A stretch of DNA of 64,000 bases from Tichowtungia aerotolerans (lineage in GTDB: Bacteria > Verrucomicrobiota > Kiritimatiellia > Kiritimatiellales > Tichowtungiaceae): positions 1,492,900-1,556,899 of the forward strand of contig NZ_CP047593.1 of NCBI RefSeq assembly GCF_009905215.1, read 5' to 3'. This document shows, in pieces, positions 1 to 60,420 of the stretch. The position numbers were made by a program, and so were the translations under genes. Under the pieces are notes generated by a model, which was given only the letters and a program-made list of their open reading frames with translations, searched no databases and was not told where the DNA came from. Each line of letters starts with the position of its first letter. The first letter of the stretch is position 1.

Positions 1-228
1 CAGCGGCTGATCATTGACGCCGGTGAAAAAGACGGGGCGTATAAAGGTATGCGTTTTCTGGTTATTCGTTCGGACGGCGGATTCGAACAAGGCAAGGTGC
101 TTCAGGCCGGCAACCGGCCGGCAGAACTTGTGATTTCAAAGGTTGAGTCCCAGACGGCCTTCGCTATACTTTTCGGCAGACATCCTGATCTGGCGGTACG
201 CGCGGGAGATTATGTCTTTGCACGATGA
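1..228 (+). CDS. C-terminal end of an unidentified protein (partial)
   Basis: The frame is open from the first base of the window and ends with TGA at 226-228, giving the last 75 residues. They form an all-beta tail with a GMRFLVIR segment and the ending AGDYVFAR. The tail resembles the last 60 or so residues of the next gene, which has GDTFAIITR, so the two may share a small C-terminal beta-domain like those at the ends of FlgT/CsgG-like envelope proteins; this is inference. The stop overlaps the next ATG in an ATGA junction, so the two genes are translationally coupled. The start lies outside the window and the function is unknown. Confidence 0.7.
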   Translation, partial: QRLIIDAGEKDGAYKGMRFLVIRSDGGFEQGKVLQAGNRPAELVISKVESQTAFAILFGRHPDLAVRAGDYVFAR

Positions 229-42340: not shown

Positions 42341-45160
42341 ATGGTGATAAAGCGATGTTTGAATTTAATCGGCTTTTTAGCTGTTGGCGGCGTGATTTTT
42401 GCTGCGGGAGAATCCCCGTATCGCACGTTGCCGATGCTTCAGTCCACACCCGAAACAGAGAGGCCGCTTTCGCTTGGGTTTACGACCCATGCTTTGCTTC
42501 CATGGTTTGGAACGAATGAGCCGCCGGCGCTGCTGGTGATGGGGCATGGCGGTTATTTTGAACATCGGAATCTTATATATCGCGCGGAGTCCAAAGACGG
42601 AGGGAGAGAAATGTTTTCTTTGCCGGCGGACTATCCGGTTTATGACAGCGGTCAGCCGCTGACTGAACTGGAGCCCGGGCGGAGCATTCCTGTTTTGAGA
42701 TCCGACGGGTTGTTTGATGTGATACAGCCTCAAAAATGGATCTATCATGTAAATTCGGGAGTTGTCGGGGCTCCGAAGTTTGAACTGTCTTATGAGCTCG
42801 AATTTAAAGACGTACCGAAAAAAGGGGATGTCTGGGTTGAAGATGTGACGGGTGATGGGGTGCCGGATGTTCTTATTGGCGGAATGACTCATCCGGGCGA
42901 GAAGTTCAAGATGTATCCCGATCATCCCAAGGAGAAGGGGCCTTGGGGCGGAGTGCCGCATCCTAATATGGGGACTTTGCCGGATACGGATATTCAGAAC
43001 TTTCGGGGATACGACATTGCGGGTAATTGGATGGGTTATCCGGTTCGTAAATATCTTTGGTGGGCAAAAGGAATGCGTGAAGAAAGCGGGAAGCTTTCAT
43101 TCGGAAAGTGCCGCAACGTGCTTTTGGGAAGCGCCGATTATCCGGTTCAGTGGCAGTGCTATGATGACAGCATGGCTCCGGTGGTAATGGATCTGGAAGG
43201 CAGTCCGCATATTCTTCTGTTTTCTGATAATAATCAGGCCTATGCGCTGCAGGTGCGCGGAGAGGACGGTGTGGAGCTTCGGGTTGGCAAGCCGCGGCCG
43301 TTGCTTAAAGACGGTGCTCCTATGTTGTCTGTAAATCGGCCAAAGGTGATCGGCAAGGGGGATCTGAACCTGGATGGTCGGATGGATTTGGTGATTGGAT
43401 CGGGTGCCAACGGGCGTTGTACTGTTTTGAGCGGATCCGCTCCGGGGAATTTTGAAGATCTCGGGAATATTTTCTGCAAAGGCGGTCCTTTGGCCGGGGA
43501 TACGCTGGCTTTGCCGGTGCGTGTTGACTGGACCGGAGACGGATATAAGGATGTGATTATCGGTGGAGGCTCGGGCGAGCTTTCGCTCTGGGCCGGAACC
43601 GCAGATCCGTTTGTTTACGATGGATGCAGGTTCTTTAAGACGCCGGCTGGATTTGTCCGGCATAGGCCAGTGGACGGCAATTTACAGGGCAATAATGAGA
43701 TCGCCTGGAGTTACATTCAGCCGGAAGTGTTTGATTGGGACGGCGACGGAAATCTGGACCTCATTACTAATGACAATGAAGCCAAGCTGTTTTTCTATCG
43801 TGGAACCGGTTCCAGTGTAATGCTCGAAGAGCGGAAGCGGTTTCTGATGGGCGGCAAGCCGCTGCCTCTCGCCTGGCGCAGTCGTCCGGCGGTGATTGAC
43901 GGAAAATATGGTGTGGCGGGGGATGCCCGGCCCTGTCTGCTGTTTATGAAATGGGACAATACCTATGCTGTCGCTGTGCCGGATGCCCGGGGAAGTTTGA
44001 ATATGGAGCGGGTGGTAGACCTGCGGGATGAGGACGGCCTGCCGATCCGTACCAGCGGGCCGGCCGGTCTTTCCGGCCGTACGAAGTTGTCTGTTGCCGA
44101 CTGGGATGGGGACGGTGTGTGGGATATTGTAATCGGATCCCAGCAAGCACTGCAGCGTTATTTTCGTCAGCCGGAGCGTGAATCGCCAACGGCTGCACCA
44201 TTCTGGCTGCGGAATGTCGGTTCAAATGAAAAGCCGGTTTTCCAGCTTCCGCGTATGATTACATTTAAGGATGGTTCTCCGATTCATCTGAATAAGCACA
44301 ATTTTAACATTTGGCCGACCGATTTGAATGAAGATGGCTTGCTGGATATTATTTTTGGAGATGATGAGGGTTTTATATTTTACCTCGATCGAGATCCGTT
44401 GGCTTGGAATGAGAGTATCGAGGCTGATCGTCAAATGAAGAAAATGGCGGCAGGCACCGGCATTTCAGCAGTGCCGTATGTATCGGGAGAAAAGGTTTTT
44501 GTTGAAAACTGGGATTATCCGGATCAGTCGATGTCGGCACCGATGAAAAAAGGTGATGGGTGGGCGAATGGCTGGAAGAGTCGTGGTTCGGCAAACAGGG
44601 TGCGCACATTTTCAATGAATCCTTTAGGGGTGTTTTCATTGGCCTCCACCGGAGGCTATGCCGCACTGAGCGGGGAAGGAACGGGAACTTCTGTGATCGA
44701 GCGGTTTTTGGCTAACCCGATTGATTTTAATCCGGAAAAAGAAACTGTGTTTACATTTTCACTGGTTTATTTCCGTGAAGATAATTTAGATAATGCAGGA
44801 ACCGAAGTGCTGGGGCTTTTCGGTTTGAACACTGTTGATGGGAAGACACTTTGCGGTGTTGAGATCAGCTCTAATGAGGCGTTGGCGTTGACGCTGGGCG
44901 GGAAAATGGTGTCTACTGAAGACTGTAAAGTAAGTTTTAACGGCGGCTATGTGGTGCAGGGAAAACTGGTTGTTCGGCCTGAGGGGGACAACGATGAGCT
45001 GTTCGTTCGGTTGAGTTCGGATATCCCCTCCGGGGACCCTTTGCAGTGGGATTTGAAACTGGAGATGGATGTCGATGGTGTGGCATCTGTGTTTCAACAG
45101 CGAATTATGAAGTATGCAGGCTGGCTATATGTTGATAATTTGCAGATGCATGCAAAGTAG
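42341..45160 (+). CDS. Secreted FG-GAP/VCBS beta-propeller protein with DNFDY-type C-terminal module
   Basis: About 939 residues starting MVIKRCLNLIGFLAVGGVIFAA (signal peptide). Six or more FG-GAP-like blades with calcium loops are visible (DVTGDGVPDVLIGG, DLNLDGRMDLVIGSG, DWTGDGYKDVIIGG, DWDGDGNLDLITND, DWDGDGVWDIVIGS, DLNEDGLLDIIFGDD), which suggests a seven-bladed propeller at about 130-710. Residues about 720-939 are a diverged copy of the jelly-roll-like module of the next secreted proteins (VENWDYPDQSMS, GWANGWKSRG). It may be a carbohydrate-binding protein or lyase; no catalytic residues were assigned. ATGs at 42332 and 42341 are both possible. It is the first gene of the GntR locus. 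Confidence 0.75.
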   Translation: MVIKRCLNLIGFLAVGGVIFAAGESPYRTLPMLQSTPETERPLSLGFTTHALLPWFGTNEPPALLVMGHGGYFEHRNLIYRAESKDGGREMFSLPADYPVYDSGQPLTELEPGRSIPVLRSDGLFDVIQPQKWIYHVNSGVVGAPKFELSYELEFKDVPKKGDVWVEDVTGDGVPDVLIGGMTHPGEKFKMYPDHPKEKGPWGGVPHPNMGTLPDTDIQNFRGYDIAGNWMGYPVRKYLWWAKGMREESGKLSFGKCRNVLLGSADYPVQWQCYDDSMAPVVMDLEGSPHILLFSDNNQAYALQVRGEDGVELRVGKPRPLLKDGAPMLSVNRPKVIGKGDLNLDGRMDLVIGSGANGRCTVLSGSAPGNFEDLGNIFCKGGPLAGDTLALPVRVDWTGDGYKDVIIGGGSGELSLWAGTADPFVYDGCRFFKTPAGFVRHRPVDGNLQGNNEIAWSYIQPEVFDWDGDGNLDLITNDNEAKLFFYRGTGSSVMLEERKRFLMGGKPLPLAWRSRPAVIDGKYGVAGDARPCLLFMKWDNTYAVAVPDARGSLNMERVVDLRDEDGLPIRTSGPAGLSGRTKLSVADWDGDGVWDIVIGSQQALQRYFRQPERESPTAAPFWLRNVGSNEKPVFQLPRMITFKDGSPIHLNKHNFNIWPTDLNEDGLLDIIFGDDEGFIFYLDRDPLAWNESIEADRQMKKMAAGTGISAVPYVSGEKVFVENWDYPDQSMSAPMKKGDGWANGWKSRGSANRVRTFSMNPLGVFSLASTGGYAALSGEGTGTSVIERFLANPIDFNPEKETVFTFSLVYFREDNLDNAGTEVLGLFGLNTVDGKTLCGVEISSNEALALTLGGKMVSTEDCKVSFNGGYVVQGKLVVRPEGDNDELFVRLSSDIPSGDPLQWDLKLEMDVDGVASVFQQRIMKYAGWLYVDNLQMHAK

Positions 45161-45202: not shown

Positions 45203-45952
45203 ATGGCCGGAGCGATGAAAAAGGAAGCGTATCAGTTTATTCTTCAGAAAATGGTGCGCGGTGAACTTTTGCCGGGAATGCAGATATCGGAGCTTTCGAT
45301 TGCTGCTGAACTGGGTGTCAGTCGCAGTCCAGTGCGTGATGCATTGAGTCAGATGGTTTCAGAAGGCATGGTTGAACGGGTTCCCAGGTATGGAACGGTA
45401 ATCAAGCAGTATTCTGCTCAGGAATTGGCAAATCTGTATGACTTACGCGTGGCACTGGAAAGTTATGCGGCAGCTCAGGCCGCCCAGAAGATTACTCCGG
45501 AGATGCTGGAAAGGCTGGAGGAAGCCTGCGAGCGCATTAATGCCATTGCTCAGGAACTGAAAAAAAGCGGCAATGGGCAAATCACCCCAGAGATGCTGAG
45601 TGAGATGTTCAAACAGGACATGAACTTTCATCTGATCATTTTGCGGGCAACCGGGAACCAGCTGCTGCTCAAGAGTGCTTATGAATCCAGACTGATGACC
45701 CGGATTTTCGGAACATCCAGAATTGAAAGCTTTGATTTGGAGCATGTGGCTGGAGTTTATCGGTTCCATTGCGAGGTTTTGAAGGCGATTAAGCAAGGGG
45801 ATGCTGAAATGGCACGGGTGACGATGGCCCGCCACATTTCTTCCGGTAAGGAAGGAGCGCTGAAATTTGTTGCTGAGCATCAGCTTCATCAGGAGCGTGA
45901 GGCGTTCGACGATATTGCTGAAACCATTATCAGCAGTGCGGGAGAGATTTAA
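45203..45952 (+). CDS. GntR-family regulator, FCD subfamily
   Basis: The 249-residue protein has an N-terminal winged helix (LLPGMQISELSIAAELGVSRSPVRDALSQMVSEGMVERVPRYGTVI) and a C-terminal all-helical FCD ligand domain with metal-type residues in FKQDMNFHLIIL and YRFHCEVLKAI. FCD regulators usually repress sugar-acid, sialic-acid or amino-acid catabolic genes until the ligand binds. GAGGAG precedes the ATG. Four TGGTATACCA-like sites lie at promoters on both sides of this gene, which makes it the likely local repressor. Confidence 0.92.
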   Translation: MAGAMKKEAYQFILQKMVRGELLPGMQISELSIAAELGVSRSPVRDALSQMVSEGMVERVPRYGTVIKQYSAQELANLYDLRVALESYAAAQAAQKITPEMLERLEEACERINAIAQELKKSGNGQITPEMLSEMFKQDMNFHLIILRATGNQLLLKSAYESRLMTRIFGTSRIESFDLEHVAGVYRFHCEVLKAIKQGDAEMARVTMARHISSGKEGALKFVAEHQLHQEREAFDDIAETIISSAGEI

Positions 45953-46141: not shown

Positions 46142-48298
46142 ATGATAACTCGGATGGGTACTAAAGTCTGTGCGGTGGCGCTGTTGATCCTGTCTTCAGC
46201 GTCGGTTGTGCGGGGAGTATTAATTGCTTCTGATAATTTCGATTATATGTTGGGAACAGTCATTGCTTCCGGGGGCACATTGGGAAATGCGGGGGAAAGC
46301 GGATTTCTTAATGAATGGAAGTTTTCAGCTCATAGCGGTGAAGTGGTTGAAAATCTGAATTTTCCCGGGGTGGAGTCATCAGGAAATGCACTCAAAATTA
46401 TTCGCAATAATTCGGGGTCCTTGTTCCGCGGCATGAGGGCTCCTCTTACGGGGGCATACTATGTGGGCATGATCTTTGTTCGTAATGATATTGATAACGG
46501 CGGCGGTGAGAACTGGCGCTTAGAGCTTAGGCATTCGGCCGGGTATGCCGGAATTGAAGCGTCCAGTGTCAAGTACCAGATTGGTTCTTCGAGTACGGAA
46601 CTGGCCGAGGTCAAGGCGGCCGGTGCAACGGCTTCCAGCTATGGGACAAAAGCGTATGGAATCGGAAGCCCTGTTTATGTGTTGGCCAAAGTAGAGATGT
46701 CAGATTCAGGGCCCGATACTGTTTCGATGAAGTGGTATGATGTCTTTGACGAATTTCCAGCGAAGGAGAGTGGTATTGTGTGGGATGCGGTCAGCTCCGG
46801 TGAGTTTGCTCCCGGTGCCGGATGGAAACTGATTCTTCCATCGCACATCGATGAGATGATCATTGACGAGTTCAGGGTTGGAACAGAATTCGCTGATGTA
46901 ATTTCCGGAGGGAAGCCGGGAGAGTCGTCAAGTGATCTTTCAGAGCAGCAGGTAGACAGCGGTCGGTGTTTGATTGCCGCAGCGGAAGCCGGACGTTGGT
47001 TGAAAGGCGATGCGCCGCAGTTTGAAGCCGGGCAGCGGGTTTGTTTTCTGGGTGACAGCATTACTCATTACGGGCACTGGTGGACTTATGTCTGGAGTTA
47101 TTATATTTCACGGTTTCCTGAGTGCCCGCTCGTGTTTGTAAATGCCGGGATTGCCGGCGATACGGCGGGAGATGGATTGAAACGCTGGCCGGCGGTACTG
47201 CAGGCGGCCCGTCCCAATCTGGTTTGTGTAATGTTCGGAATGAACGATATGGATCGGTCTGCATATCGAGGAGAGGGGGCTCCGGGAGTGCAGGAAAAAT
47301 CTCTGCATCAATACGAAGCTTCAATGGACAGCCTGCTTGCGTGCATTAAAGGACAGGGACTTCCGACAATTGCTGTGACATCTTCTCCGTATGACGGACG
47401 GATGCGGGCTCCCGGAGTATCCAACGGGATTGAGAGAGGCAACGAAGGGTTGGCCCGTGCTGTTACGATTGTTGAGAGAGCGGCCGATCGGTATGGTGCT
47501 TCCGTGATTGATCTTCATACACCGATGACGGCAATTCAGGATGCACTTCAAAAAAAGGATCCTGCGCGAACGATTATTGGCCGGGATCGGGTTCACCCTG
47601 AATCCGAAGGATCGTGGATTATGGCGTGGAATTTTTTGGCCGCACAGCATGTTCCCGCAGAGGTGGCCGCATTTGTGCTGGATTATAAAGCCGGAAAAAT
47701 TAAGGAGACGGTCAATTGTCAGAGTTCAGCGGTAAAAGTTGATCACGATGGAATCATTATCAGTTACAAGCCGGAAGTTTTGCCGCTTCCGGTGTTCGAT
47801 GGATACAGGGCCGCTGATACAGTGGTTCCCTTAACTGATACATTAAACCGCGAAGTCATACAGGTGCAGAACCTGCCCGTTGGGAATTACCGATTGATAT
47901 TGAATGGGAAAGAGGTCGGAACGTGTTCCGACAAGGTTTTGCATGAAGGGTTAAATATCAGCACTTTGCCGTCCAATCCGAATCAAAAGATTGCTTCGGA
48001 GATGATGAAGCTGCTGATGGAATATGTTGCTCTCTGCCGGGCTAAGCAGGAGATCACGTATATGAACCTGCAGCGATTAATTCCGGTAGGAATGGATGTC
48101 GACGATGTTTCGGCGGCCAGAGATTATTTCACGAATGTCTATAAACCTCATCATGGGGGCGACCGTAAGCGGGTTGAGGCCTATTTGAAGTGGCGCGGAA
48201 GGGAAGAGCAACTGCAAAGGGAGGCAGACAGTATGCTTGCATCTGTTTATGCAAGTGCGCGCCCTGTCCCTGTTGAGATTATAATTTGTGCGGAATAG
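46142..48298 (+). CDS. Secreted SGNH hydrolase with N-terminal DNFDY module
   Basis: The 718-residue protein has a signal peptide to about residue 25. Residues 26-252 are the shared beta-module (ASDNFDYMLGTVIASGGTLG, NEWKFSAHSGEVV, RGMRAPLTGAYYVGMIF, MIIDEFRVGTE). The SGNH hydrolase domain (about 295-490) has the nucleophile S306 in FLGDSITHYG, an FGMNDMD oxyanion block, and D482/H485 in RDRVHPES. The last 220 residues include a helical region (MMKLLMEYVALCRAKQEITYMN). It may be a sialate or sugar O-acetyl esterase or a related lipase; the substrate is unknown. AAGGAG precedes the ATG. Confidence 0.82.
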   Translation: MITRMGTKVCAVALLILSSASVVRGVLIASDNFDYMLGTVIASGGTLGNAGESGFLNEWKFSAHSGEVVENLNFPGVESSGNALKIIRNNSGSLFRGMRAPLTGAYYVGMIFVRNDIDNGGGENWRLELRHSAGYAGIEASSVKYQIGSSSTELAEVKAAGATASSYGTKAYGIGSPVYVLAKVEMSDSGPDTVSMKWYDVFDEFPAKESGIVWDAVSSGEFAPGAGWKLILPSHIDEMIIDEFRVGTEFADVISGGKPGESSSDLSEQQVDSGRCLIAAAEAGRWLKGDAPQFEAGQRVCFLGDSITHYGHWWTYVWSYYISRFPECPLVFVNAGIAGDTAGDGLKRWPAVLQAARPNLVCVMFGMNDMDRSAYRGEGAPGVQEKSLHQYEASMDSLLACIKGQGLPTIAVTSSPYDGRMRAPGVSNGIERGNEGLARAVTIVERAADRYGASVIDLHTPMTAIQDALQKKDPARTIIGRDRVHPESEGSWIMAWNFLAAQHVPAEVAAFVLDYKAGKIKETVNCQSSAVKVDHDGIIISYKPEVLPLPVFDGYRAADTVVPLTDTLNREVIQVQNLPVGNYRLILNGKEVGTCSDKVLHEGLNISTLPSNPNQKIASEMMKLLMEYVALCRAKQEITYMNLQRLIPVGMDVDDVSAARDYFTNVYKPHHGGDRKRVEAYLKWRGREEQLQREADSMLASVYASARPVPVEIIICAE

Positions 48299-48308
48299 AT
48301 CTTTTTAA

Positions 48309-48356
48309 TTGACGGATTACGCGCCGGATGAGATAAATAACACCTCTGGTATACTA
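48309..48356 (+). promoter_or_regulatory. Promoter with TGGTATACTA operator (48347-48356)
   Basis: TTGACG (48309-48314) and GATAAA (48332-48337) with a 17-bp spacer make a good promoter. The operator lies just past the -10 box, near the expected start of transcription. Confidence 0.6.
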
Positions 48357-48395
48357 CGTGAATTCTAGTGAAGCATTGCAGAAGGGAGAGAAGAG

Positions 48396-50267
48396 ATGAG
48401 AAGTTGGTCGAGTATTAAAGCATGTGTAACAGTGGCTTGTGTCCTGTTTTTGGTATCGTCGGCGATGGGGACATTGGTTGCCTGGGATAATTTTGATTAT
48501 CCTCTGGGGACAACAGTTGCTGCCGGCGGGACATTAGGCGCTGAAAGCACGAATGGGTTCAACAATGCATGGAAATTTACAACACATTCCGGAGAAGTCG
48601 TTGATAATCTGGAGTTTCCGGGTGTGGCATCGTCCGGAAATGCGCTCAAAGTGACTCGTAACACTGGCGGCTCCCTCTTTCGCGGCATGAGTTCTTCTCC
48701 GGCCGGCACATACTATGTGAGTATGATTTTTTTCCGGAATGATACGAACGACGGCGGGGGTGAAAACTGGCGTTTAGAGCTTCGGCATTCAGCCTCATAC
48801 TCTGGAATCGAAACATCCAGTATTAAATATCAAATCGGTTCTTCGAGTACAGAGCTGGCTGAAGCCAAGGCTGCCGGGGCGTCGGCTTCCAGCTACGGAA
48901 CCAAAGCGTATGCTGTTGGGAGCCCTGTTTTTGTGCTGGCCAAAGTGGAGATATCAGATTCGGGATCCGATACCGTTTCGATGAAATGGTATAATTCGCT
49001 GGATCTCGTTCCAACATCGGATAGCGGGATCGAGTGGGATGCCGTCAGTGTCGGTGAGTTTGTCGCCGGTGCAGGGTGGAAGTTAATCCTTCCCTTATAC
49101 ATTGGCGAGATGATCATCGATGAATTCCGGGTGGGCACAGAGCTGGTCGATGTTGTGCCGGCCGGCGGGCCTTCGCTGCTTGTTTACGATAATTTCGATT
49201 ATACTTTGGGAACAACCATTGCCACGAACGGGACCATGGGGACGACAGCTAACGGGTTTGCCAACGGCTGGCTGTTTGACGGTTATTCTGCCGAGGTGGT
49301 CTCCAACTTGAATTTTTCCGGGGTGGAATCCTCCGGGAATGCGCTCAAGCTTATTTATGAGGAACCGGGACATTTGTTTCGGGGTATGCTCAGCCCTCTG
49401 TCGGCCGGTACATACTATATGAGTACGATTTTTTTCCGGGATGATGTAAATGATGGCGGTGGAGAAAACTGGCGGTGGGAGGTTCGGCATTCCAGCAGCC
49501 ATTCATCCGGGCCGGCTTCGTCCGTCAAGGTGTCGCTGGGCAGTACCAGTGGTGAACAGGTGGATTTGCAGGTTGCCGGTGATGCCGCTCAGGTCGGGGC
49601 TGCAACTTACAATATCGGGGCGCCGGTTCTCATGCTGGCCAAGATTACCATTGATGAGTCCGGCGCGGAAATTGCATCAATGAAGTGGTATAATATCGGG
49701 GATACGCTTCCAACCGAAGACAGCGGCATTGTGTGGGATGCGACCAGCACAGGGGAGTTCTCCGGAGGCAGTGGCTGGCTGTTTGCGCTGGGGCAGTATA
49801 ATCAGGAGTTCACTATCGATGAATTTCGGCTGGGGCGGACCGTTTCCTCTGTTGTGCCGGCGGGCCCGGTTTTTTCCGGATACGAACTCTGGTCGGCAAT
49901 CCATGTTTTGCAGGAAGGTCCGTTCGGCGATGATGATGCGGATGGTCTGAGCAACCTTTATGAGTACGGTCTTGGCGGCGATCCGACCAACTCGGCCGAT
50001 CAGGGCGTCTCTCCGGAAGTCGGCGTTATTGCAGACAACGGGACCAATTGGTTCAGCTATGTCCATCCCGCCCTGGCGCATTCAAACAGCGGAGTCAGTT
50101 ACTCCCTTGAGTTGACGGATGATCTGATTGCCGGCTCCTGGACCAATATCGGATATGCCATTGCCGGTACGAATGTCACCGGTGGTGCGCTCAACTATGT
50201 GTCGAATCGGGTCTCGACGCTCGATGCTGATCAGCAGTTTATCCGGCTGATTGTTGAACAGCAGTAA
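48396..50267 (+). CDS. Secreted protein with two DNFDY modules and the shared C-terminal module
   Basis: The 623-residue protein has a signal peptide (to VSSAMG), two copies of the beta-module in tandem (about 28-255 and 262-490) and the shared C-terminal module from 492 (DDDADGLSNLYEYGLGGDP, then WFSYVHPALAHSNSGVSYSLELTDDL and QFIRLIVEQQ). The first copy is very similar to the module of the gene before it; the second is closer to the module of the next gene. There is no catalytic motif. It is probably a surface carbohydrate-binding protein. GGGAGAGAAG precedes the ATG. Confidence 0.78.
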   Translation: MRSWSSIKACVTVACVLFLVSSAMGTLVAWDNFDYPLGTTVAAGGTLGAESTNGFNNAWKFTTHSGEVVDNLEFPGVASSGNALKVTRNTGGSLFRGMSSSPAGTYYVSMIFFRNDTNDGGGENWRLELRHSASYSGIETSSIKYQIGSSSTELAEAKAAGASASSYGTKAYAVGSPVFVLAKVEISDSGSDTVSMKWYNSLDLVPTSDSGIEWDAVSVGEFVAGAGWKLILPLYIGEMIIDEFRVGTELVDVVPAGGPSLLVYDNFDYTLGTTIATNGTMGTTANGFANGWLFDGYSAEVVSNLNFSGVESSGNALKLIYEEPGHLFRGMLSPLSAGTYYMSTIFFRDDVNDGGGENWRWEVRHSSSHSSGPASSVKVSLGSTSGEQVDLQVAGDAAQVGAATYNIGAPVLMLAKITIDESGAEIASMKWYNIGDTLPTEDSGIVWDATSTGEFSGGSGWLFALGQYNQEFTIDEFRLGRTVSSVVPAGPVFSGYELWSAIHVLQEGPFGDDDADGLSNLYEYGLGGDPTNSADQGVSPEVGVIADNGTNWFSYVHPALAHSNSGVSYSLELTDDLIAGSWTNIGYAIAGTNVTGGALNYVSNRVSTLDADQQFIRLIVEQQ

Positions 50268-50304
50268 GTTGATCGCGAATGCGAATGTTATAATAAACTG
50301 TTAG

Positions 50305-50335
50305 GTAAAACATGGCTTTCAAAGCCATGTTTTAC
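50305..50335. terminator. Perfect 31-bp palindrome, probable bidirectional terminator
   Basis: GTAAAACATGGCTTT and its exact complement are separated by one base. The GC-rich stem flanked by A- and T-runs fits an intrinsic terminator. Confidence 0.75.
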
Positions 50336-50360
50336 TGGATAGAGCAATTGCAAGGTTGGT

Positions 50361-53300
50361 ATGAAAGGTCATTGGTCAGCTTTTCAGGTATATGCCATGT
50401 TGATAACGGTATTGCTTGCTACGTCATCGGCGCGTGGAAGTCTGCTTGTTCATGATAATTTTAATTATGCGGCGAATACGGTTGTGGCACCGGGAGAAAC
50501 CCTCGGGAGCGCTGCTGATGGCTTTTCCAATCCCTGGAAATTCAGCGGCTATTCGGGGGAGGTGGTTGCGGGGCTTGAATTTCCCGGGGTTGAATCCTCC
50601 GGAAATGCGCTCAAGGTCTGCTATGAGGGGGCGGGGTATCTGTTCCGCGGCATGGCCAGCTCTTTGAGTGCCGGTACGTATTATATGAGCATGATCTTTT
50701 TCCGGGATGACGCGGATGACGGCGGCGGAGAAAACTGGCGGTGGGAGCTTCGGCATGCCGGCAGTTACGCCTCCGGGCCGATTTCTTCCATCAAAACATC
50801 GCTGGGCAGCACTAGCGGCGAGCAGGTGAACCTGCAGGTGGCCGGTGATGTGTTTCAGGTCGGCGTTGCCACTTATAAGCCGGGGACTCCGGTTTTCATG
50901 CTGGCTAAGATAGCTATTGATGATTTCGGTGCGGAAACGGCCTCAATGAAGTGGTACCGGTTTGGGGAGCCGCTCCCGGTTGTGGAGAGCGGAATCGTGT
51001 GGGATGCAACCGGCATCGGTGAGTTCACCGGTGGAAGCGGCTGGAATTTTGTTCTGAACAGCAATATTCCGGAAATTACGATCGATGAATTCCGGCTGGG
51101 AACCGAACTGTCCGATGTTATTCCGGTTTCTCCGCTAAATCTGCCGCCTGCGCACCCTTCTTTTCAGCATGTATTTAACTATACAGCTCATTATCAGATC
51201 TATAATGACGAATCATCTCCCCGATATCTGACAGCGGACAATGCTGCCGGTTATGCGGATGGCAGTCCGATCAAACTGTCGGATGCAAACGGGCAGTTGA
51301 CCCAGCGCTGGGTCCTTGATGCATTCCCGGACGGACAATCCCGAATTCGCAGTTTTAATGCGCCTTATTTTGTTCGGGCCAATGCGGAAGACGGCGGGTG
51401 GAACAGCGGTGATCCGGTTCAACTTCATTCTTGGATGGACTGGAGCAGTCAGAAGTGGACGCTGATACCGCAGGATGACGGCCATGTGTCTTTTAAAATT
51501 GCTCCCAACGATTTTTATATGAGTGCAGAAGCTGTCTCCAATGATGCTCCAATTGAGCTTGATTCCTGGCAGGATGAATCCCGTCAGAAATGGGTACTGG
51601 ATATTCAGGATACGATACAAAGCCCTTATATTCTTCGGGCTGCCGATGGGAATTTGCTGGCATTTTTCCGCTATTCAACGCCCATTGCCTCGAATCAGGG
51701 ATTGCTGTATACCTCACTGGATGATGGGCGGACGTGGTCGTTAAAAACGGCGTTTGCTCAGGATATCTACGGGCCGACCCTGTTTGTTTTGAACAATGAT
51801 CTCTACATGCTTTATGTCAGTATGGAAGATAATACAAAACTTCAGCTGAAAAAGAGCGCCGATCACGGTGCCAGCTGGAGTAATCATGTGCTGGCTGAGT
51901 TTCCGGATGGTGTTGAAACAAGCGGCGGGGCCGATGTGCTGATTAAAGACGGAATTCTGTATTACGGGTTTGCTGATCGGGGCGGTCCGGGAGGATGGCC
52001 GTCTCAATACCGTTTGCGTGTGGCGTCATGTTCCGTCAGCAGCGACCTGATATCGGCGTCCAGCTGGAAGGTAACCGCTCCGTTGGAATTTCCTTCTTCG
52101 CCGGCGGTGTCCGGGACGCGGAATGGGTGGCTGGAGGCCAACTGTGTTGCGGGTCCGGATGGCCGTGTTTGGGTGGTGGCCCGGGTGGATAAGGTGTCCG
52201 GAGGGGATGTGGCTGCGGTGCTGAAGGTTGCAGCGGACCGCACGGCGCTTGAGTTTAACAATCAGTATCCTGCACCGGGAAATGAAACCGGATTTATTTA
52301 TGCTCCGTGGGCAGGTTCGAGCAAGTTCCACTTTGTTTATGACGATGTTTCCAGCCGGTATTTGGTGATGTGTAATCCTTATCTGGGCGCGCCGCCATCC
52401 AGCAGCAGCCATCCTTATGTTCGCAACATACTGGCGCTCTACGAGACAACGGATTTAAAAAATTACCAACTGGTAAAAACGCTTGTTGACGACGATTCCT
52501 TCGAAGACTGGAACCAGTCGAGCTTGCGTACAGGATTCCAGTATCCGGTATTTATAATTGATGGGGAGTCACTGAAGTATGTTGTTCGTACGGCTTACAG
52601 GAGTTTCGATAACTACCATGATGCAAATATGGGGACCTATCACGAGCTGGAAAACTTCAGGGAATACCTCTCGCCCGACGGCGAGCTTGCCTACTATAGG
52701 TTTGATGCACCAAACGAACCGGGCCTTGATTCATCGAAAATGAAAGGGAATTTTTCTGATGTTGTCGGGGCAGAATATGCCCCGAATGGGAAATATGGAG
52801 GGTGTCTTTTGTTTGATGGTGTCGATGATGGGTTGGGATTGATGCATCGTGTTTCACCTAAGCTTCACCGGAGCAAGCAGGTAAGCGTTTCCGTCTGGAT
52901 CAAAAACAATACCGGTTCCGGGCCGGTCTTCACCTCGGCGATTGATGGCGCTTTCGCCGGTTTGGCGCTGCAGGTTCTTTATGGAAAACTCCAAATGACC
53001 GCCCGCAGTCTTTCTTCCGATGCACTGCAGGCTCGGGAGTTCGCTTATCCTTCAACGGGGCAGTGGCACCATGTTGTTGCTTTGTGGGATTTTGAAAACA
53101 GTACCATGCGGCTGTGGCTTGATAATGTGGAGCAGGCCGGCAATGGAACCGTGGTGTTTGGCAGCGGGGAATACACTCGCGGCGCACCGGCATATCAGGA
53201 TGCGATTGGCCGCCATTTTAATGGATCTCAATATTTTAGTGGAAATATTGATGAGTTTCACCTGTACAGTCGGGTGTTGAGCGGAGAAGAAATCTCCGCT

Positions 53301-53705
53301 CTGTTCTATGGCCCGGGATATGGCGAGTGGGCAAGCGGTAACGGGCTGTCTGAAGGGCCGTACGGCGATGATGATCAGGACGGTCTGCTCAACCTCTATG
53401 AATACGGCCTTGGCGGAGACCCAGCCAATGCGGCAAGCCGGGGTCTTGCGCCGCAGGCCTCTGTTACTAAAGACCGCGGAACGAATTGGTTCTGCTATGT
53501 TTATTCGGTTCTGTCGGCTGTCGATAACGGGTTGTTTTACTCCCTTGAGTTGACCGACGACCTGGCCTCCGGGGTTTGGACAAACGGCGGCTACATCGTT
53601 GCGGGAACCAACGCGCCGGGCGGTGCATTCAATTATGTTTCGAACCGGGTGTCTGCGGTTGATGACGATCAAAAGTTCATTCGGCTTGTTATTGAGCAGC
53701 AGTAA
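50361..53705 (+). CDS. Secreted sialidase-like protein with DNFDY, ricin-B, BNR, LamG and C-terminal modules
   Basis: The 1114-residue protein has, in order, a signal peptide, the shared beta-module (about 30-258), a ricin-type beta-trefoil with QRW/QKW repeats (about 270-420), a six-bladed sialidase-like propeller with Asp-boxes SLDDGRTWS and SADHGASWS (about 422-765), a LamG/concanavalin-like domain (about 770-985: WHHVVALWDF, NIDEFHLYSRVLSGEEI) and the shared C-terminal module (DDDQDGLLNLYEYGLGGDP to FIRLVIEQQ). The propeller may be an exo-sialidase or another glycosidase, but the catalytic Arg triad was not verified. A decayed relative of the LamG part lies at 60010-60420. Confidence 0.82.
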   Translation: MKGHWSAFQVYAMLITVLLATSSARGSLLVHDNFNYAANTVVAPGETLGSAADGFSNPWKFSGYSGEVVAGLEFPGVESSGNALKVCYEGAGYLFRGMASSLSAGTYYMSMIFFRDDADDGGGENWRWELRHAGSYASGPISSIKTSLGSTSGEQVNLQVAGDVFQVGVATYKPGTPVFMLAKIAIDDFGAETASMKWYRFGEPLPVVESGIVWDATGIGEFTGGSGWNFVLNSNIPEITIDEFRLGTELSDVIPVSPLNLPPAHPSFQHVFNYTAHYQIYNDESSPRYLTADNAAGYADGSPIKLSDANGQLTQRWVLDAFPDGQSRIRSFNAPYFVRANAEDGGWNSGDPVQLHSWMDWSSQKWTLIPQDDGHVSFKIAPNDFYMSAEAVSNDAPIELDSWQDESRQKWVLDIQDTIQSPYILRAADGNLLAFFRYSTPIASNQGLLYTSLDDGRTWSLKTAFAQDIYGPTLFVLNNDLYMLYVSMEDNTKLQLKKSADHGASWSNHVLAEFPDGVETSGGADVLIKDGILYYGFADRGGPGGWPSQYRLRVASCSVSSDLISASSWKVTAPLEFPSSPAVSGTRNGWLEANCVAGPDGRVWVVARVDKVSGGDVAAVLKVAADRTALEFNNQYPAPGNETGFIYAPWAGSSKFHFVYDDVSSRYLVMCNPYLGAPPSSSSHPYVRNILALYETTDLKNYQLVKTLVDDDSFEDWNQSSLRTGFQYPVFIIDGESLKYVVRTAYRSFDNYHDANMGTYHELENFREYLSPDGELAYYRFDAPNEPGLDSSKMKGNFSDVVGAEYAPNGKYGGCLLFDGVDDGLGLMHRVSPKLHRSKQVSVSVWIKNNTGSGPVFTSAIDGAFAGLALQVLYGKLQMTARSLSSDALQAREFAYPSTGQWHHVVALWDFENSTMRLWLDNVEQAGNGTVVFGSGEYTRGAPAYQDAIGRHFNGSQYFSGNIDEFHLYSRVLSGEEISALFYGPGYGEWASGNGLSEGPYGDDDQDGLLNLYEYGLGGDPANAASRGLAPQASVTKDRGTNWFCYVYSVLSAVDNGLFYSLELTDDLASGVWTNGGYIVAGTNAPGGAFNYVSNRVSAVDDDQKFIRLVIEQQ

Positions 53706-55457: not shown

Positions 55458-55874
55458 CTATCCCTTTTTGATGATCAGGTTGCTGTAGCCGGCCTGTTCG
55501 CCGGTCATGACGCAGGCGTAGGCGTTTGCTGCACGGCGATAGAACGCAAAGCGTTCGATGCGTTCGGGGGTCGGAGCTTCCGGGGAATGCTTCCGGATGG
55601 TGTTCATATATTCGGCTTCAATTTCCGGGTCCAGTGCGTCATTTCCCGCCGGCGCCATCATGAATAATGGATGCTCATAGGTATCCAGTTCGAAGAGTGG
55701 CATAATTCCTTCGAGCAGTTCGGTAACACGCAGGCCGTCCGCCCGAATGACGTTGTTGCAGCACGAATGCCCGGGGAATTTTGCATCCGCCAAAACCAGT
55801 TCATCGCCATGTCCCATCTCGGCCAGGATTTTCAGAAGCTCCGGACTAATGATCGGTGAGATTCCTTTCAGCAT
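55458..55874 (-). CDS. RbsD/FucU-family sugar mutarotase
   Basis: The 138-residue protein matches RbsD/Fuc[37 protein letters not shown] with the active-site histidine in MGHGD, and the C-terminal [18 protein letters not shown]. Such enzymes speed the exchange of sugar anomers in the cytoplasm. The start at 55874 follows an AGGAAG site and overlaps the end of the GH2 gene by 7 bp, so it is the last gene of the minus-strand operon. Confidence 0.9.
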
Positions 55875-57835
55875 GTTCTTGCTTCCTGCTGACAATGATT
55901 TTGAAACACTTCTTTTGCGGCATAGTAGGCAGGCTTGGGGGTTCCGTCGTAATTGATGATGGAGGTGTTGTTACCCACCGGCATGCAGTCGTGCCCCATC
56001 CAGATCAGAACCCCGGAGCAGCGCGGGAATCTCTTCTTGCACCGGGTCAGAGCGAAAGCCAGAAAGTCCGCCTGTCGCTTCTGGGATTTTTCAACATAGT
56101 CTTCCAGATCGCATTTGTTGGAATCATTCGCCAGCCATGGTTGAAGCCACCATGCCGAGGTATGTCTCCAGAAGGAATTGTCCAGGGAAATAGGGGCAAC
56201 AGGCATTTCCCCGGCATAGCGGCGGATCAGGGTCGCATCACTTGCTCCGGCCACACCCGTCTCCGATCGGAGCAATGCATCGTCATGATTCCAGTAGTTG
56301 TGCCACTCTTCCTCGGTGCTGCAGTAATCCCATGGGCCGTGGACGTGATGATGAAGTCCTTTGCCTCTGGTTTTATCCGACACAGCGAACTCAGGGCCGC
56401 TGGGAGAGGTGGGCAGATAGGATATGCCGGGGGATTCGGCTGATACGACTTCGCCCAAAGCCTGCAGGGCTGGGTGGGTTTCATCCAGGGGGCGGATATT
56501 TTTTTCATGGTCAGGAACTGTTGTCAGTTCGTTGCCGCCGCACCAGAGAAGCAGCGAAACATGATGGGAGCGCCTTCTGACATAATCGCAGGCAACCTCA
56601 CTCAGGCGGCAGATGAAATCTTCTTCAACCGGAGGATAGTTTTCACACCCTGAGGATGAAAGCGGAAAATCCTGCCAGACAAGTATGCCCAGTTCATCGC
56701 ATTTTTCGTAGAAGTATTCTCGCTCCAGATGTCCGCCGCCCCATACCCGTAATACATTAACGCCCATTTCATGGTAGAGCCGGATCAGTTGGTCATAGCG
56801 TTCCATGTCGAAATCTGGATAGTCCAGTAAGACCGGCGTCCAGTTGACTCCCTGCAGGAAAAGTGTCTGACCGTTCACTTCACAGAGGAGCGGACGGGCG
56901 TTCTCCGGAGCGCCTTCACAGGGCAGCCAGCGCACATGCTTAAACCCGATTTTGCTCCTGAGGATTGATATCTGTTGATCCTGTGTTTCGTAGAGCACTT
57001 CTATGTCGTACAGGTCGGGGGCTCCCTGCTGATTGGGCCACCACAGTCGGGGATTTTGAAGATGAAATTCCTGTTCCTGACTGCCCGGTCCAAGCTCAGC
57101 TTCATATTCAATCCGTGTGTTGGTTTTTCTGTCGCAAAGCACAAGACGAAGTGGGATGGCAGAAGAACAATGATTGTTCAGACGAAGAGTGATTGTTCCC
57201 GTCTGCAAATCGCGAGACAGTCTGGAAAACGTGTTTGTTAATGTGACAGAAGGGGAACCTGTAAGAAGGTAAAGCGAATCCCAGATTCCTGTGGGCACAA
57301 ACCGCACCGACCAGTCCCAGCCAAAATTATAGCGGGGCTTCAGGTATTTTGAACGGGATGTGTAACCGACCTGCCCCTGTTCCTCCGGTGGGATGTCGAA
57401 AATAATACGCAGCCGGTGTTTCCGGCCATCCATTATCGTGTCGCCAAGGTTGATGGCATGCCGCTTCAGAGCGCCGGAAAACGTTCCGACAGTTTCATCG
57501 TCCACCAGAATCCATCCGGAATAATCGAGTCCTTCCGCCAGGAGTTGAACCGGTTCGCCGGTTGGAATCTCTCCTTCTTCAATTTCGGTTACAAATTCCC
57601 AGTGCCGGTGTTCGACCCATTCGCAGGCCAGTGAGTTCTGCTCGATGTTCCAGTCTGGAATAACTCCGTGCCGGAGCAGGGTTGTTTGGACAGAGCCGGG
57701 TAGAACCGCATCGTAGGGACCGCACTCCGGGCGAAGGAGAACCCCTATTTCCGCCGAGTATTTCAAGTCCCACATATAGGGTCGCCATGCCTGCATACTC
57801 CATGGACGATCCAGCAGTTTTGTTTGCTGACTCAT
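55868..57835 (-). CDS. GH2 beta-mannosidase-like glycosidase, cytoplasmic
   Basis: The 655-residue protein has no signal peptide. It shows the GH2 order of a sugar-binding domain ([18 protein letters not shown]), immunoglobulin-like domain and barrel, with acid/base E436 in LLWCGGNEL and nucleophile E525 in [32 protein letters not shown] and [26 protein letters not shown] are typical of beta-mannosidases. It probably removes beta-linked mannose from imported oligosaccharides, in line with the GH130 gene upstream. It is somewhat shorter than usual for the family. Confidence 0.85.
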
Positions 57836-57860
57836 AATCGATTTTTCGGATTTTGATTTG

Positions 57861-58901
57861 TTATTTTAAACCGGCCAGAACTTCTTCAAGCGAAATCTCG
57901 GCATAGGCGATGTGGGTGTCGGCTGCGCCGTAATAGATTTTGATGATGCCGTCTTCAAACAGCACGCCGTTGTTGAAAACAATATTGCCGAAAAATCCGT
58001 TCACCTCGTAATCGGCTTCAGGTTTCATGATCGGTTTTTCGCTGCGGCCGAGGATTTTCCACGGTTCATCCGCGTCCAGCAACAGCGCTCCCAGGCAGTA
58101 ACGGTTGTTCTTGTCGGCTCCGTGATAGATTTCGAGCCAGCCCTCTTCGATGCGAAAGGGAACCGCGCTGCCGCCGACGCGGCCGTCGTCCCAGAATCCT
58201 TCGCGGGTCGTCAGGAAATTGCGGTGGTTTCCCCAGCACATCAGATCAGGGCTTTCCGCCATCCAAATACTGCGATGTTTGTATTCCGCGGAGGTGGGGC
58301 GATGGAGTGCATAGTATTTCCCGTTGATTTTTTCCGGGAAAATTTCGACGTCCTTGTTGTCGGGCGCGAAAATGACACCATGTCGCTCAAAGGTTTCAAA
58401 GTCGGTTGTTGATGCCAGCAGGGTGGTGATTCCGACGTCGGCTGTTCCGCAATAGTTAATGTAGTATGTGTCATCGATTTTTGTAATCCGTGCGTCTTCG
58501 ATTCCGTACTCTTCGTACACGTTCGCAGGAAACATGGCGGGTTTTTCATCAATCGAGAAATGTATTCCGTCTTTGCTGCGCGCCAGACGGAGATGGGAGA
58601 TCGATGTAAGGAACTGCTGCTCCGCGGTTCGCACAAAGCGTGAATCCGAATAATCAATGGATTTGTCTGTTCGGTCAAAATCACGAACAATCAGTTCGTT
58701 TTGTTCTGATGAAAAAATGGGAACCCGTTCGATAGCAGGATTATCATTCTTTGGAATTTCTGCCACGCGAAGCAGAAGGATAACTTCATCCTTGTAGCGG
58801 GTGACGCCGGCGTTGAAGGTGCATACGACTTCGAAATCCGGGCGTGACGGTTTTACGTCGCAGGGGCTGATTAACGGGTTTTCGGGATGTCTGATAATCA
58901 T
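57861..58901 (-). CDS. GH130 beta-mannoside phosphorylase-like enzyme
   Basis: The 346-residue, five-bladed propeller-type protein has no signal peptide. Family features: ENPLISPCDVKPSRPDFEV near the start, the key acidic residue region EEYGIEDARITKIDDTYYINY, FPEKINGKYYALHRPTS, and YHGADKNNRYCLGALLLD. GH130 members split beta-mannosides, mostly with phosphate to give mannose-1-phosphate. The substrate could be Man-beta-1,4-GlcNAc or a manno-oligosaccharide. ATG 58901 is used because the family begins here; the frame extends to 58973 without support. Confidence 0.87.
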   Translation of the reverse strand: MIIRHPENPLISPCDVKPSRPDFEVVCTFNAGVTRYKDEVILLLRVAEIPKNDNPAIERVPIFSSEQNELIVRDFDRTDKSIDYSDSRFVRTAEQQFLTSISHLRLARSKDGIHFSIDEKPAMFPANVYEEYGIEDARITKIDDTYYINYCGTADVGITTLLASTTDFETFERHGVIFAPDNKDVEIFPEKINGKYYALHRPTSAEYKHRSIWMAESPDLMCWGNHRNFLTTREGFWDDGRVGGSAVPFRIEEGWLEIYHGADKNNRYCLGALLLDADEPWKILGRSEKPIMKPEADYEVNGFFGNIVFNNGVLFEDGIIKIYYGAADTHIAYAEISLEEVLAGLK

Positions 58902-58936
58902 ATCTTTGTTCTTTTTGCTGTCTGGTTTGTTGATGT

Positions 58937-59878
58937 TTAAACGACCGGATGGATTTCGGTGAGTCCTTCCCATTCCGCAGCCTCTTCTGCCAGTTTAGCG
59001 ATGGATTCCAGATCGTCTTTTGTAAAGCGGGTATGAGGTTGTGTAACGACCGGCTTGATCAGGTTGAAATGACTCAGCACCAGTTTCCGCAAGGCCAGTC
59101 CGACGGTGCTGCTGTACGGCGCACAGTCGTTCATGCTGTTTACTTTGGCGATCCTGTCCAGATAAGCCTGTGATTCAAGCGAGTTGATTTTTGACCACAT
59201 CTTGCTGGTCGATGACGGCAGAATATTTGCAGTGGAAGAGACGATCCCGTCCGATTCATGCAACAGGGCCGGGTCAAGTAATCCTTCATGACCGTTTAGA
59301 ACGCGGAATGAATTCGGGTCGCGCAAGGCGAGCAGCTTTTTGAAATACTCCCTGTCTCCGCTGCTGTCCTTGATGCCGACAATATTCGGGTGCTGAATGA
59401 GGCGTTCAATCGTTTCGATCCGGATGGATGCCACGACTGTCCATGGGATATTATAAAGAAGTACTCCACGCGATGCGGCGTCAGCAACGGTCAGAAAAAA
59501 CTCTGTCTGTTCATGTATATCATCGATCGGGAAGTAATAGGGAAGAGTAACGGTTATAAAATCCGCTCCGGCCGATTCTGCCGATTTCAGGTTCCGTATT
59601 GTTTGTTGTGTTCCGGCGTGTGAGCTGATGCCGGCATAAATCGGTATCCGGCCGTCTGCAGTCGAGACAACGGTTTCGATTGTGCGCTGCCAACTGTCTT
59701 GGTTTAAACGTGAAATTTCGCCGGTCGTTCCCAGAGTGAGAATTCCTTGTACGCCTCCGCCAATCAGGAAGTTTACGAGCCGTACAATCGCCTCGGTGTC
59801 TACGGATTCATCCTCGTGAAGAGGGGTTACCATTGGCGCAACAATGCCTTGTTTGAACTTCGATAGGTAATTACTCAC
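58937..59878 (-). CDS. DapA/NanA-family lyase (dihydrodipicolinate synthase/N-acetylneuraminate lyase-like)
   Basis: The 313-residue class I aldolase-type protein shows the carboxylate-binding GTTGE (residues 50-54), active-site tyrosine Y142 in LLYNIPWT and the Schiff-base lysine K170 in VGIKDSSGD. The start is GTG at 59878 with an AAGG site; the first internal ATG would remove a conserved strand. In a catabolic operon with GH130 and GH2, an aldolase for sialic acid or a keto-deoxy sugar acid is more likely than a lysine-biosynthesis enzyme. It is first in a minus-strand operon driven by the promoter at 60020-60048. Confidence 0.88.
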   Translation of the reverse strand: MSNYLSKFKQGIVAPMVTPLHEDESVDTEAIVRLVNFLIGGGVQGILTLGTTGEISRLNQDSWQRTIETVVSTADGRIPIYAGISSHAGTQQTIRNLKSAESAGADFITVTLPYYFPIDDIHEQTEFFLTVADAASRGVLLYNIPWTVVASIRIETIERLIQHPNIVGIKDSSGDREYFKKLLALRDPNSFRVLNGHEGLLDPALLHESDGIVSSTANILPSSTSKMWSKINSLESQAYLDRIAKVNSMNDCAPYSSTVGLALRKLVLSHFNLIKPVVTQPHTRFTKDDLESIAKLAEEAAEWEGLTEIHPVV

Positions 59879-60009: not shown

Positions 60010-60420
60010 TTATGCCCCAGTAGTATACCAGTGGGAGAAAAAGGTCAATGCTCTTTTTGAAACATCCTCCGGTGATTGGGAGCAGGTTGTGGTGCCGCTA
60101 TATAAATCATTAATTTCTCCGGCATTTAGTTTGCGGTTGTAAATATGGAATTCATCAATAGAGCCATCAAACCAGCTTGATCCGCTATAGTGGCACCCGA
60201 TCCGGTCCTGATGCCGGGGGCTTCGCGGTAATAACCATCCTTGCTGAACGAAACGGTACCGCTGCCGGTCTGTTCAGCTTTATCGAGCCATAATCGCATT
60301 GTATCAGAGGCAAAGTCCCACTCTGCAACTACATGCCGCCAGATTCCTGTTCCCGAGAAGGGGAAATTGCGTCTCTGAAATGAATCAGTGGAAACGCTGC
60401 GCCCGACAGCCGTTATCCGG
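60010..60420 (-). pseudogene. Frameshifted LamG-domain relic
   Basis: The frame reading GIWRHVVAEWDFASDTMRLWLDKAEQTGSGTV closely matches the LamG domain of the protein at 50361. The match then jumps to another frame (SWFDGSIDEFHIYNRKLNAGEINDLYS) near 60200, so a frameshift split it. The second frame ends with TAA at 60010-60012. There is no start and no upstream domains. The lyase operon promoter lies inside this relic's tail. Confidence 0.75.
60020..60048 (-). promoter_or_regulatory. Promoter of the lyase operon with TGGTATACTA operator (60021-60030)
   Basis: On the minus strand TTGACC (60048-60043) and TATACT or TACTAC serve as -35 and -10; the operator covers the -10 box. It matches the operators at 42294, 46106 and 48347. 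Confidence 0.6.

What the first reader, a model, noticed from the sequence alone, without database searches (positions are those of the whole stretch)
46142..53705. Expanding family of DNFDY-type modules in one locus
A module of about 225 residues (DNFDY..GT..GGTLG, W-K-F, GENWR-ELRHS, IDEFR-GTE) occurs once at 46142, twice at 48396, once at 50361 and, diverged, at the C-terminus of the 42341 protein. Module 1 of 48396 matches the gene before it and module 2 matches the gene after it, which points to recent duplication and recombination between neighbours.
Basis: seen in the sequence. Interest (0 to 1): 0.5.

Follow-up and report, generated by a model that had tools for sequence, protein, structure and literature searches.

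The report
Spreading lectin-fold modules in polysaccharide locus
Three neighbouring genes of a bacterium related to Kiritimatiellales carry four copies of an unnamed lectin-shaped protein module that probably helps catch sugar polymers; the copies are old rather than recent, and comparison with one related genome suggests that such modules can be replaced while the rest of the protein stays.

Summary
Four modules of ~228 aa lie in three adjacent genes (A at 46142, B1 and B2 at 48396, C at 50361); they are the only strong copies found in the 3.88-Mb genome. A matches B1 (73% aa), B2 matches C (67%), cross pairs 50-56%. The fifth, at the C-terminus of the 42341 protein, is a distant member of the wider superfamily, seen only with a broader profile. 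"Recent" is not supported: synonymous sites are near saturation (pS 0.67, 0.56). Gene conversion inside modules is at most weakly hinted. Gene-level mosaicism is supported: B joins an A-type and a C-type module. A Kiritimatiellales MAG (S014_20) has a similar locus: its C homologue is 53-67% identical to C in propeller, LamG and tail, but 22-29% in the module, whereas its module is 70% identical to its neighbour's. Modules cluster by genome, not by gene (AU test rejects C+homologue). One comparison only. The module is predicted to be a concanavalin-A-like beta-sandwich, near sulfatases, an SGNH esterase, a symporter, GH2, GH130 and a DHDPS-family aldolase. Most likely these are exported glycan-binding modules of a polysaccharide-utilisation locus; binding and export are inferred, not shown.

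The parts
46142..48298 (+). gene A: signal-peptide-like start, module A, then SGNH/GDSL hydrolase domain (residues 302-491)
   Evidence: Pfam PF13472 E 5e-18; GDS, GxND and DxVH blocks read by eye in the sequence printed
46220..46903 (+). module A (A-type)
   Evidence: 73% aa identity to B1
48396..50267 (+). gene B: two modules plus C-terminal tail, no enzyme domain recognised
   Evidence: no Pfam family at E<=1; in NCBIfam only a far-sub-threshold match, 15.7 bits against a cut-off of 290
48474..49157 (+). module B1 (A-type)
49170..49859 (+). module B2 (C-type)
   Evidence: 66-67% aa identity to C
49872..50267 (+). C-terminal tail of B, a domain repeated across the genome
   Evidence: 61-62% identical to the tail of C; 46 matches at E<=0.01 in own genome, B and C included
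50361..53705 (+). gene C: module, ricin-B-like, BNR-like propeller, LamG, tail
   Evidence: Pfam PF14200, PF13385, and PF13088 just over its cut-off (31.7 against 31.4 bits)
50439..51122 (+). module C (C-type)
   Evidence: the fold model was made for B1 with the four-row alignment
44489..45157 (+). distant superfamily module at the C-terminus of the FG-GAP protein (gene 42341-45160)
   Evidence: 38.1 bits to a 9-sequence profile, best of 1000 shuffles 5.9; fold model failed
45203..45952 (+). GntR/FCD regulator at the head of the A-B-C run
   Evidence: Pfam PF07729, PF00392
53760..55337 (+). sodium:solute symporter, 61% identical to the symporter of the MAG locus over the part held there
   Evidence: PF00474
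55458..55895 (-). L-fucose mutarotase (FucU)
   Evidence: NF011949, 187 bits, over its cut-off of 141
55868..57835 (-). glycoside hydrolase family 2 protein
   Evidence: PF22666, PF00703
57861..58973 (-). GH130 phosphorylase family
   Evidence: PF04041
58937..59878 (-). DHDPS-family aldolase/lyase
   Evidence: PF00701
60094..60419 (-). frame-broken remnant of the LamG part of a second C-like gene, upstream of the aldolase gene
   Evidence: tblastn of C and of its MAG homologue

Best explanation
The modules are an unnamed branch, so far seen only in this genome, of a concanavalin-A-like beta-sandwich superfamily found in putative secreted proteins of this phylum. In this locus they are the probable glycan-contacting parts of exported proteins of a polysaccharide-utilisation gene set: on an SGNH esterase (A), in tandem with only a tail (B), and on a BNR/ricin-B/LamG protein (C). 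They hold substrate near the surface enzymes while products are taken up by the adjacent symporter (binding, export and role inferred). The family grew by old duplication into two types (A/B1 and B2/C), by fusion of one of each in B, and by replacement of the module on C (or on its homologue in the related MAG) while the rest of the protein was kept (shown as tree conflict; order and direction of events inferred).
For: Four strong copies, all at this locus. Split A+B1 | B2+C by 94 of 119 informative sites. B and C tails 61-62% identical. Similar locus in MAG S014_20 (WFRA01000391.1, named): C homologue, two more module genes, DHDPS aldolase, symporter in a row. C versus homologue: BNR 66.8, LamG 58.4, tail 53.0, ricin-B 38.8, module 28.6 % identity in pairwise alignment, module 22-26% in other alignments. 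Module/tail divergence ratio for C-homologue is 3.3 times that for B-C (bootstrap 95% 1.9-6.0). The four window modules are one clade (100/100, 100/99), the eight MAG modules found at E<=1e-4 another (99/99); C+homologue as a clade is rejected by AU, p 8e-6 (19 rows) and 2e-44 (18 rows). In a second MAG contig (C247) a one-module gene with a PEP-CTERM-like end (by eye) precedes a two-module gene, a DHDPS aldolase and a GH130 gene. Model pLDDT 73, pTM 0.78; best structural matches: glucuronan lyase 2zzj Z 14.6 (2.9 A, 193 aligned), ERGIC-53 14.1, GH131 14.0, alginate lyase Aly36B 14.0, legume lectins 13.6. Esterase homologues elsewhere lack the module: 0 of 19 fetched non-self loci.
Against: No binding data; the ConA-like fold holds enzymes, lectins and domains without known ligand, and the similarly shaped X122 domains showed no clear enzymatic activity and no significant binding to plant cell walls (PMC10916295, passages). 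Only one other genome, a 72% complete MAG, has the similar locus, so replacement is inferred from one comparison. A faster module clock in one lineage could mimic replacement, although inside the window pN is 0.15-0.22 at pS 0.56-0.67; the ricin-B and signal-peptide parts of C also diverge fast (38.8, 11.5%). With the fifth window module in the tree the MAG clade has only 86/58. Foldseek TM-scores were low, 0.25-0.48 to the query among the 50 rows listed. Surface location rests on signal-peptide-like starts and PEP-CTERM-like ends read by eye.
Confidence: 0.6

Rival explanations
1. Plain vertical history: one old duplication into two types, then gene duplication and fusion, with a fast-evolving module and no replacement. 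The conflict with the MAG homologue is only rate. (This rival concerns history alone and can hold together with glycan binding.)
For: The window modules alone need no gene conversion. Signal-peptide and ricin-B parts of C also diverge faster than the propeller (11.5 and 38.8%). In the first tree the modules of G023 and G581 fall on the window side (64/75), so nothing firm stands between window and MAG modules.
Against: Between B and C the module diverges no faster than the tail (67 versus 61%), yet between C and the homologue it is 3.3 times too far. In the second tree the modules of G023 and G581, another family, group with the MAG modules and leave the window modules outside (87/84, not decisive).
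Confidence: 0.25
2. Recent duplication and ongoing gene conversion between neighbours.
For: Module pairs track gene order; max-chi2 p 0.011 for a change of topology along the module; a 43-nt piece shared by A and B2 at 84%.
Against: pS 0.56-0.67; no pair significant in the permutation runs test after correction; the best long direct repeat is 300 nt at 77%.
Confidence: 0.05
3. The modules are catalytic (polysaccharide-lyase or hydrolase-like jelly rolls) rather than binding modules.
For: The top structural matches include a glucuronan lyase, alginate lyases and GH131 enzymes, within about Z 1 of lectins.
Against: The ELR-containing stretch conserved in window modules is not kept in the more distant members (alignment, by eye); the modules are attached to another enzyme and repeated in tandem, as binding modules often are.
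Confidence: 0.12
4. The modules are structural spacers or cell-envelope anchors with no ligand.
For: X122 precedent without found ligand (PMC10916295, passages); presence on proteins with unlike partners.
Against: Two subtypes keep a sharply different central stretch (40-codon window from module codon 110: 74-76% nt identity within type, 36-44% between), as expected of ligand-specific subtypes.
Confidence: 0.25

Closest known systems
Concanavalin A-like lectin/glucanase superfamily (Laminin_G_3 PF13385, L-type lectins, jelly-roll polysaccharide lyases, GH131)
   Same: Predicted beta-sandwich; Z up to 14.6; found next to hydrolase and esterase domains
   Different: No Pfam family and no NCBIfam family near its cut-off for protein B; 4-14% identity to the 50 chains listed; ligand site unknown
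CAZy X122 domains of Teredinibacter turnerae (TtX122A/B)
   Same: Fold class and size, Z 13.2-13.5; on large extracellular proteins; function unknown (PMC10916295, passages)
   Different: 7-8% identity; no relation by sequence found
Surface glycan-binding proteins of Bacteroidota polysaccharide-utilisation loci (SusD/SusE/SusF type; recalled)
   Same: Works-like comparison only: enzyme-free multi-module protein encoded beside enzymes and a transporter
   Different: Different fold (recalled); the neighbour here is a sodium symporter; SusC/SusD were not searched for in this genome
EGFDY-type N-terminal regions of putative secreted proteins in the same phylum, some with PEP-CTERM-like ends
   Same: Same superfamily by profile-profile comparison (window modules against eight modules of other genomes, E 1e-17)
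   Different: Window proteins B and C end in another, genome-wide tail domain

Membership tests
ConA-like lectin/glucanase fold | two-sheet beta-jelly-roll over the whole module | tested here: met
   AF2 model pLDDT 73, pTM 0.78, almost all beta; all 50 rows listed have Z 13.1 or more and span about model residues 1-225; moderate-confidence model, Foldseek TM low
Laminin_G_3 (PF13385) | sequence match above gathering score in the module | tested here: not met
   protein B, made of two modules and a tail, hits no Pfam family at E<=1; the PF13385 match of C lies at residues 835-979, outside its module
Carbohydrate-binding module | shown binding to a glycan | not testable with these tools
   needs expressed protein
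Jelly-roll polysaccharide lyase | conserved catalytic residues on the concave face | tested here: inconclusive
   fold match only; residue superposition not available
X122 | sequence homology to the X122 family | tested here: inconclusive
   structural match only; the profile search of PDB sequences at E<=10 listed one chain, a glucansucrase at E 0.073
Polysaccharide-utilisation locus | co-located enzymes, transporter, regulator and sugar-catabolic genes | tested here: met
   sulfatases, SGNH esterases, GntR, SSF symporter, GH2, GH130, DHDPS, FucU
Polysaccharide-utilisation locus | co-regulation by substrate; SusC/SusD pair in the Bacteroidota sense | not tested
   no expression data; SusC/SusD not searched for
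Surface glycan-binding protein | export to the cell surface | not tested
   hydrophobic N-termini read by eye only; an exosortase gene is present in own genome and in the MAG

The most novel reading that the evidence does not exclude
Relatives of a phylum in which marine MAGs were reported without SusCD capture polysaccharides with arrays of ConA-like modules that behave as exchangeable specificity cassettes: the module is replaced from a locus neighbour or another subfamily while enzyme, LamG and tail parts of the same protein are retained, giving each lineage its own module clade at a similar locus.
Probability: 0.3. Interest if true: 0.6.

Novelty: new member of a known kind. Interest (0 to 1): 0.4.

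Why it matters
A study of marine Verrucomicrobiota MAGs states that no SusCD genes for polysaccharide binding and transport were found, although PUL-like units exist (PMC8857213, passage). A repeated, enzyme-free, probably exported lectin-fold protein that in two genomes lies next to symporter and aldolase genes is a concrete, testable candidate for the capture step. The conflict between module and protein history gives a case for cassette-like replacement of binding modules. Whether the window's own genome has SusCD was not searched.

Tried and rejected
Direct comparison of the 42341 C-terminus with the four modules was too weak to call; only a profile including MAG modules decided it, and its structure prediction failed (pLDDT 47), so its fold is not claimed. 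Its own search found no relative in 331 other genomes of the class at E<=0.001. A sialic-acid reading (BNR propeller, DHDPS family, GntR) was considered: the NCBIfam N-acetylneuraminate lyase and NanR models stay far below their cut-offs, but so does the best DHDPS-type model, dapA; no solved relative of the propeller part was found by sequence at E<=0.01; FucU points to fucose; substrate left open. The pattern-based scan of viral contigs found no close relative. Genome contigs gave none for the modules and only the same MAG contig for the C core. Gene conversion tests: no clear signal. A search of the held papers for Kiritimatiell* with PEP-CTERM returned 0; a search for binding-module concerted evolution returned 3 papers, seen as a listing only. 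Papers PMC6388578, PMC10916295, PMC10880615 and PMC8857213 were seen as passages found by term. In the second tree four long-branch rows (G189, G336, G444 and the 42341 module) were dropped on purpose; the first tree holds them but lacks the three C247 modules. Module E-value lists were cut: two weak matches in the MAG and three in the own genome (E 0.009-0.35) were not studied.
Full report
Observation. A search of the own genome with B1 finds the four at E 7e-143 to 2e-70 and nothing else better than 0.23; with a seven-row profile the next match is E 0.009. Identities: A-B1 73%, B2-C 66-67%, other pairs 50-56%. Of 119 informative 2-2 nucleotide sites 94 support A+B1 | B2+C, 15 and 10 the alternatives.

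Age. pS is 0.668 for A-B1 and 0.556 for B2-C, pN 0.154 and 0.215-0.216. Parts of C and the symporter compared with the related MAG give pS 0.66-0.80. So the duplications are old, though perhaps younger than the split of the two families; saturation prevents dating. The longest direct repeats listed are 300 nt at 75% (A-B1) and 77% (B2-C); one 43-nt piece of A and B2 is 84% identical against 70% for A and B1. GENECONV-like permutation gave p 0.077 (A-B2) and 0.078 (A-B1) as lowest of six on all sites, and 0.016 (B1-B2) as lowest of six on third positions; a max-chi2 scan for topology change gave p 0.011, with 27 of 44 sites for the main split on the left and 67 of 75 on the right. I read this as rate variation or at most weak old mosaicism.

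Mosaic B. Its first module is A-type, its second module and tail are C-type (tail 61-62% to C). Third-position GC is 0.51 for B1 (A 0.49) and 0.60 for B2 and the B tail (C 0.61); B1 against B2 plus tail p 0.049, A+B1 against B2+C p 0.0014, copies of one ancestor not being independent. Stretches before A, B and C showed only short local similarity.

The related locus. The four-module profile found mostly weak relatives: 9 of 345 genomes of the class at E<=0.01 and 8 of 387 of the phylum at E<=0.001, own genome included; the seven-row profile 8 of 43 genomes of the order at E<=1e-4, own included. The useful one is G430, same order, whose contig names as Kiritimatiellales bacterium isolate S014_20 (72% complete). 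Its contig C391 carries a 1116-aa homologue of C, a module gene with a PEP-CTERM-like end, a module gene with another tail, a DHDPS-family aldolase and a symporter 61% identical to that of the window over the part held. Contig C247 carries a one-module gene with a PEP-CTERM-like end, a two-module gene, a DHDPS aldolase and a GH130 gene; contig C144 carries two modules in one frame cut by the contig end beside a frame that looks like a BNR propeller by eye. In the two two-module proteins that can be compared with a neighbour gene's module, B and the one of C247, the modules resemble a neighbour's (64-73%) more than each other (55-58%).

Tree conflict. C and its homologue are 66.8% identical in the propeller, 58.4% in LamG, 53.0% in the tail, 38.8% in the ricin-B part, 28.6% in the module, 11.5% in the signal-peptide part. 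The homologue's module is 70% identical to its neighbour's. Relative to the tail, the module divergence of this pair is 3.3 times that of B-C (95% 1.9-6.0; 0 of 5000 bootstraps at or below 1). The four window modules are one clade: 100/100 in the 19-row tree, 100/99 in the 18-row tree. The MAG modules are one clade too: 86/58 for five, where the fifth window module is their sister on a long branch, and 99/99 for eight. C plus homologue is rejected as a clade in both (AU p 8e-6 and 2e-44). Within the window four, B2+C is 100/100 and A+B1 unresolved (65/57 against), and the two pairs have 86/77 and 93/90. The conflict holds whether or not the two C proteins are strict orthologues, because module and core come from the same protein pair. 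A second, decayed C-like LamG piece at 60094-60419, upstream of the aldolase, shows that the locus once held another copy; it is slightly nearer to the MAG homologue (50.6 and 62.8%) than to C (48.0 and 51.2%), on 75-79 and 43 residues.

The fifth module. The four-module profile alone does not see it (5.2 bits, best of 1000 shuffles 8.2); five MAG modules alone give 22.0 bits (7.9), both together 38.1 (5.9), both plus eight from other genomes 27.0 (5.8), the eight alone 12.5 (12.0). It belongs to the superfamily, nearest to the MAG branch, on a very long branch.

Fold and function. The model of B1 (pLDDT 73, pTM 0.78) matches ConA-like structures: glucuronan lyase 2zzj Z 14.6 (2.9 A, 193 aligned), ERGIC-53 14.1, GH131 14.0, alginate lyase Aly36B 14.0, legume lectins 13.6, TtX122 13.5. 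Foldseek TM-scores were low (0.25-0.48 to the query among 50 rows), so the fold class is supported but no subfamily. Between the two module types the strongest difference is the 40-codon window from codon 110 (74-76% nt identity within each type, 36-44% between): a candidate specificity region.

Setting. The window holds five sulfatase-family genes, two SGNH hydrolases, GH10, GH94 and GH39-like genes, and next to the modules a symporter, FucU, GH2, GH130 and a DHDPS-family aldolase. Homologues of the esterase part of A occur in 76 of 332 class genomes, own included; of 19 fetched non-self loci none carries the module, so the module was probably added to a common enzyme. Export is inferred: an exosortase gene is present in both genomes, PEP-CTERM-like ends were read by eye in MAG relatives, not in the window proteins.

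Verdict. Correct observation (the fifth copy only distantly), right pairing, wrong on 'recent', partly right on recombination. A new unnamed family within a known fold, with an interesting but single-comparison case for module replacement.

Noticed in passing
window 49872-50267, 53310-53705, about 18390-18788 and 15095-15451; 46 places in G000: A ~110-130 aa domain (DDD.DGL.NL.EY.LGGDP ... ELT.DL....W.N ... FIRL) at the C-terminal end of these window proteins has 46 matches at E<=0.01 in the genome, B and C included, some partial or with a stop in the frame; protein B, which carries it, matches no Pfam family. Possibly a sorting or anchoring domain; the end position was checked only in the window.
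   Followed up: partly
window 60094-60419 (-): Frame-broken remnant of a C-like LamG domain upstream of the DHDPS aldolase gene; in the MAG the module genes lie upstream of a DHDPS aldolase gene.
   Followed up: yes
window 55458-59878 (-): Tightly packed or overlapping run FucU-GH2-GH130-DHDPS; suggests catabolism of fucose or another deoxy sugar acid, substrate unknown.
   Followed up: partly
L060 (G000:C1:1556900-1570000): Just past the window: glucosamine-6-phosphate isomerase-like, two APH-fold kinases, epimerase, nucleotidyl transferase; looks like an amino-sugar or nucleotide-sugar set.
   Followed up: no
window 225-1835 (+): Caspase-domain (Peptidase_C14) protein with a CsgG-like match further on.
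   Followed up: no
L090 (G430:C247) and L058 (G430:C144): Further tandem modules in the same MAG, one pair next to a BNR-like frame; with C391 eight modules at E<=1e-4.
   Followed up: partly
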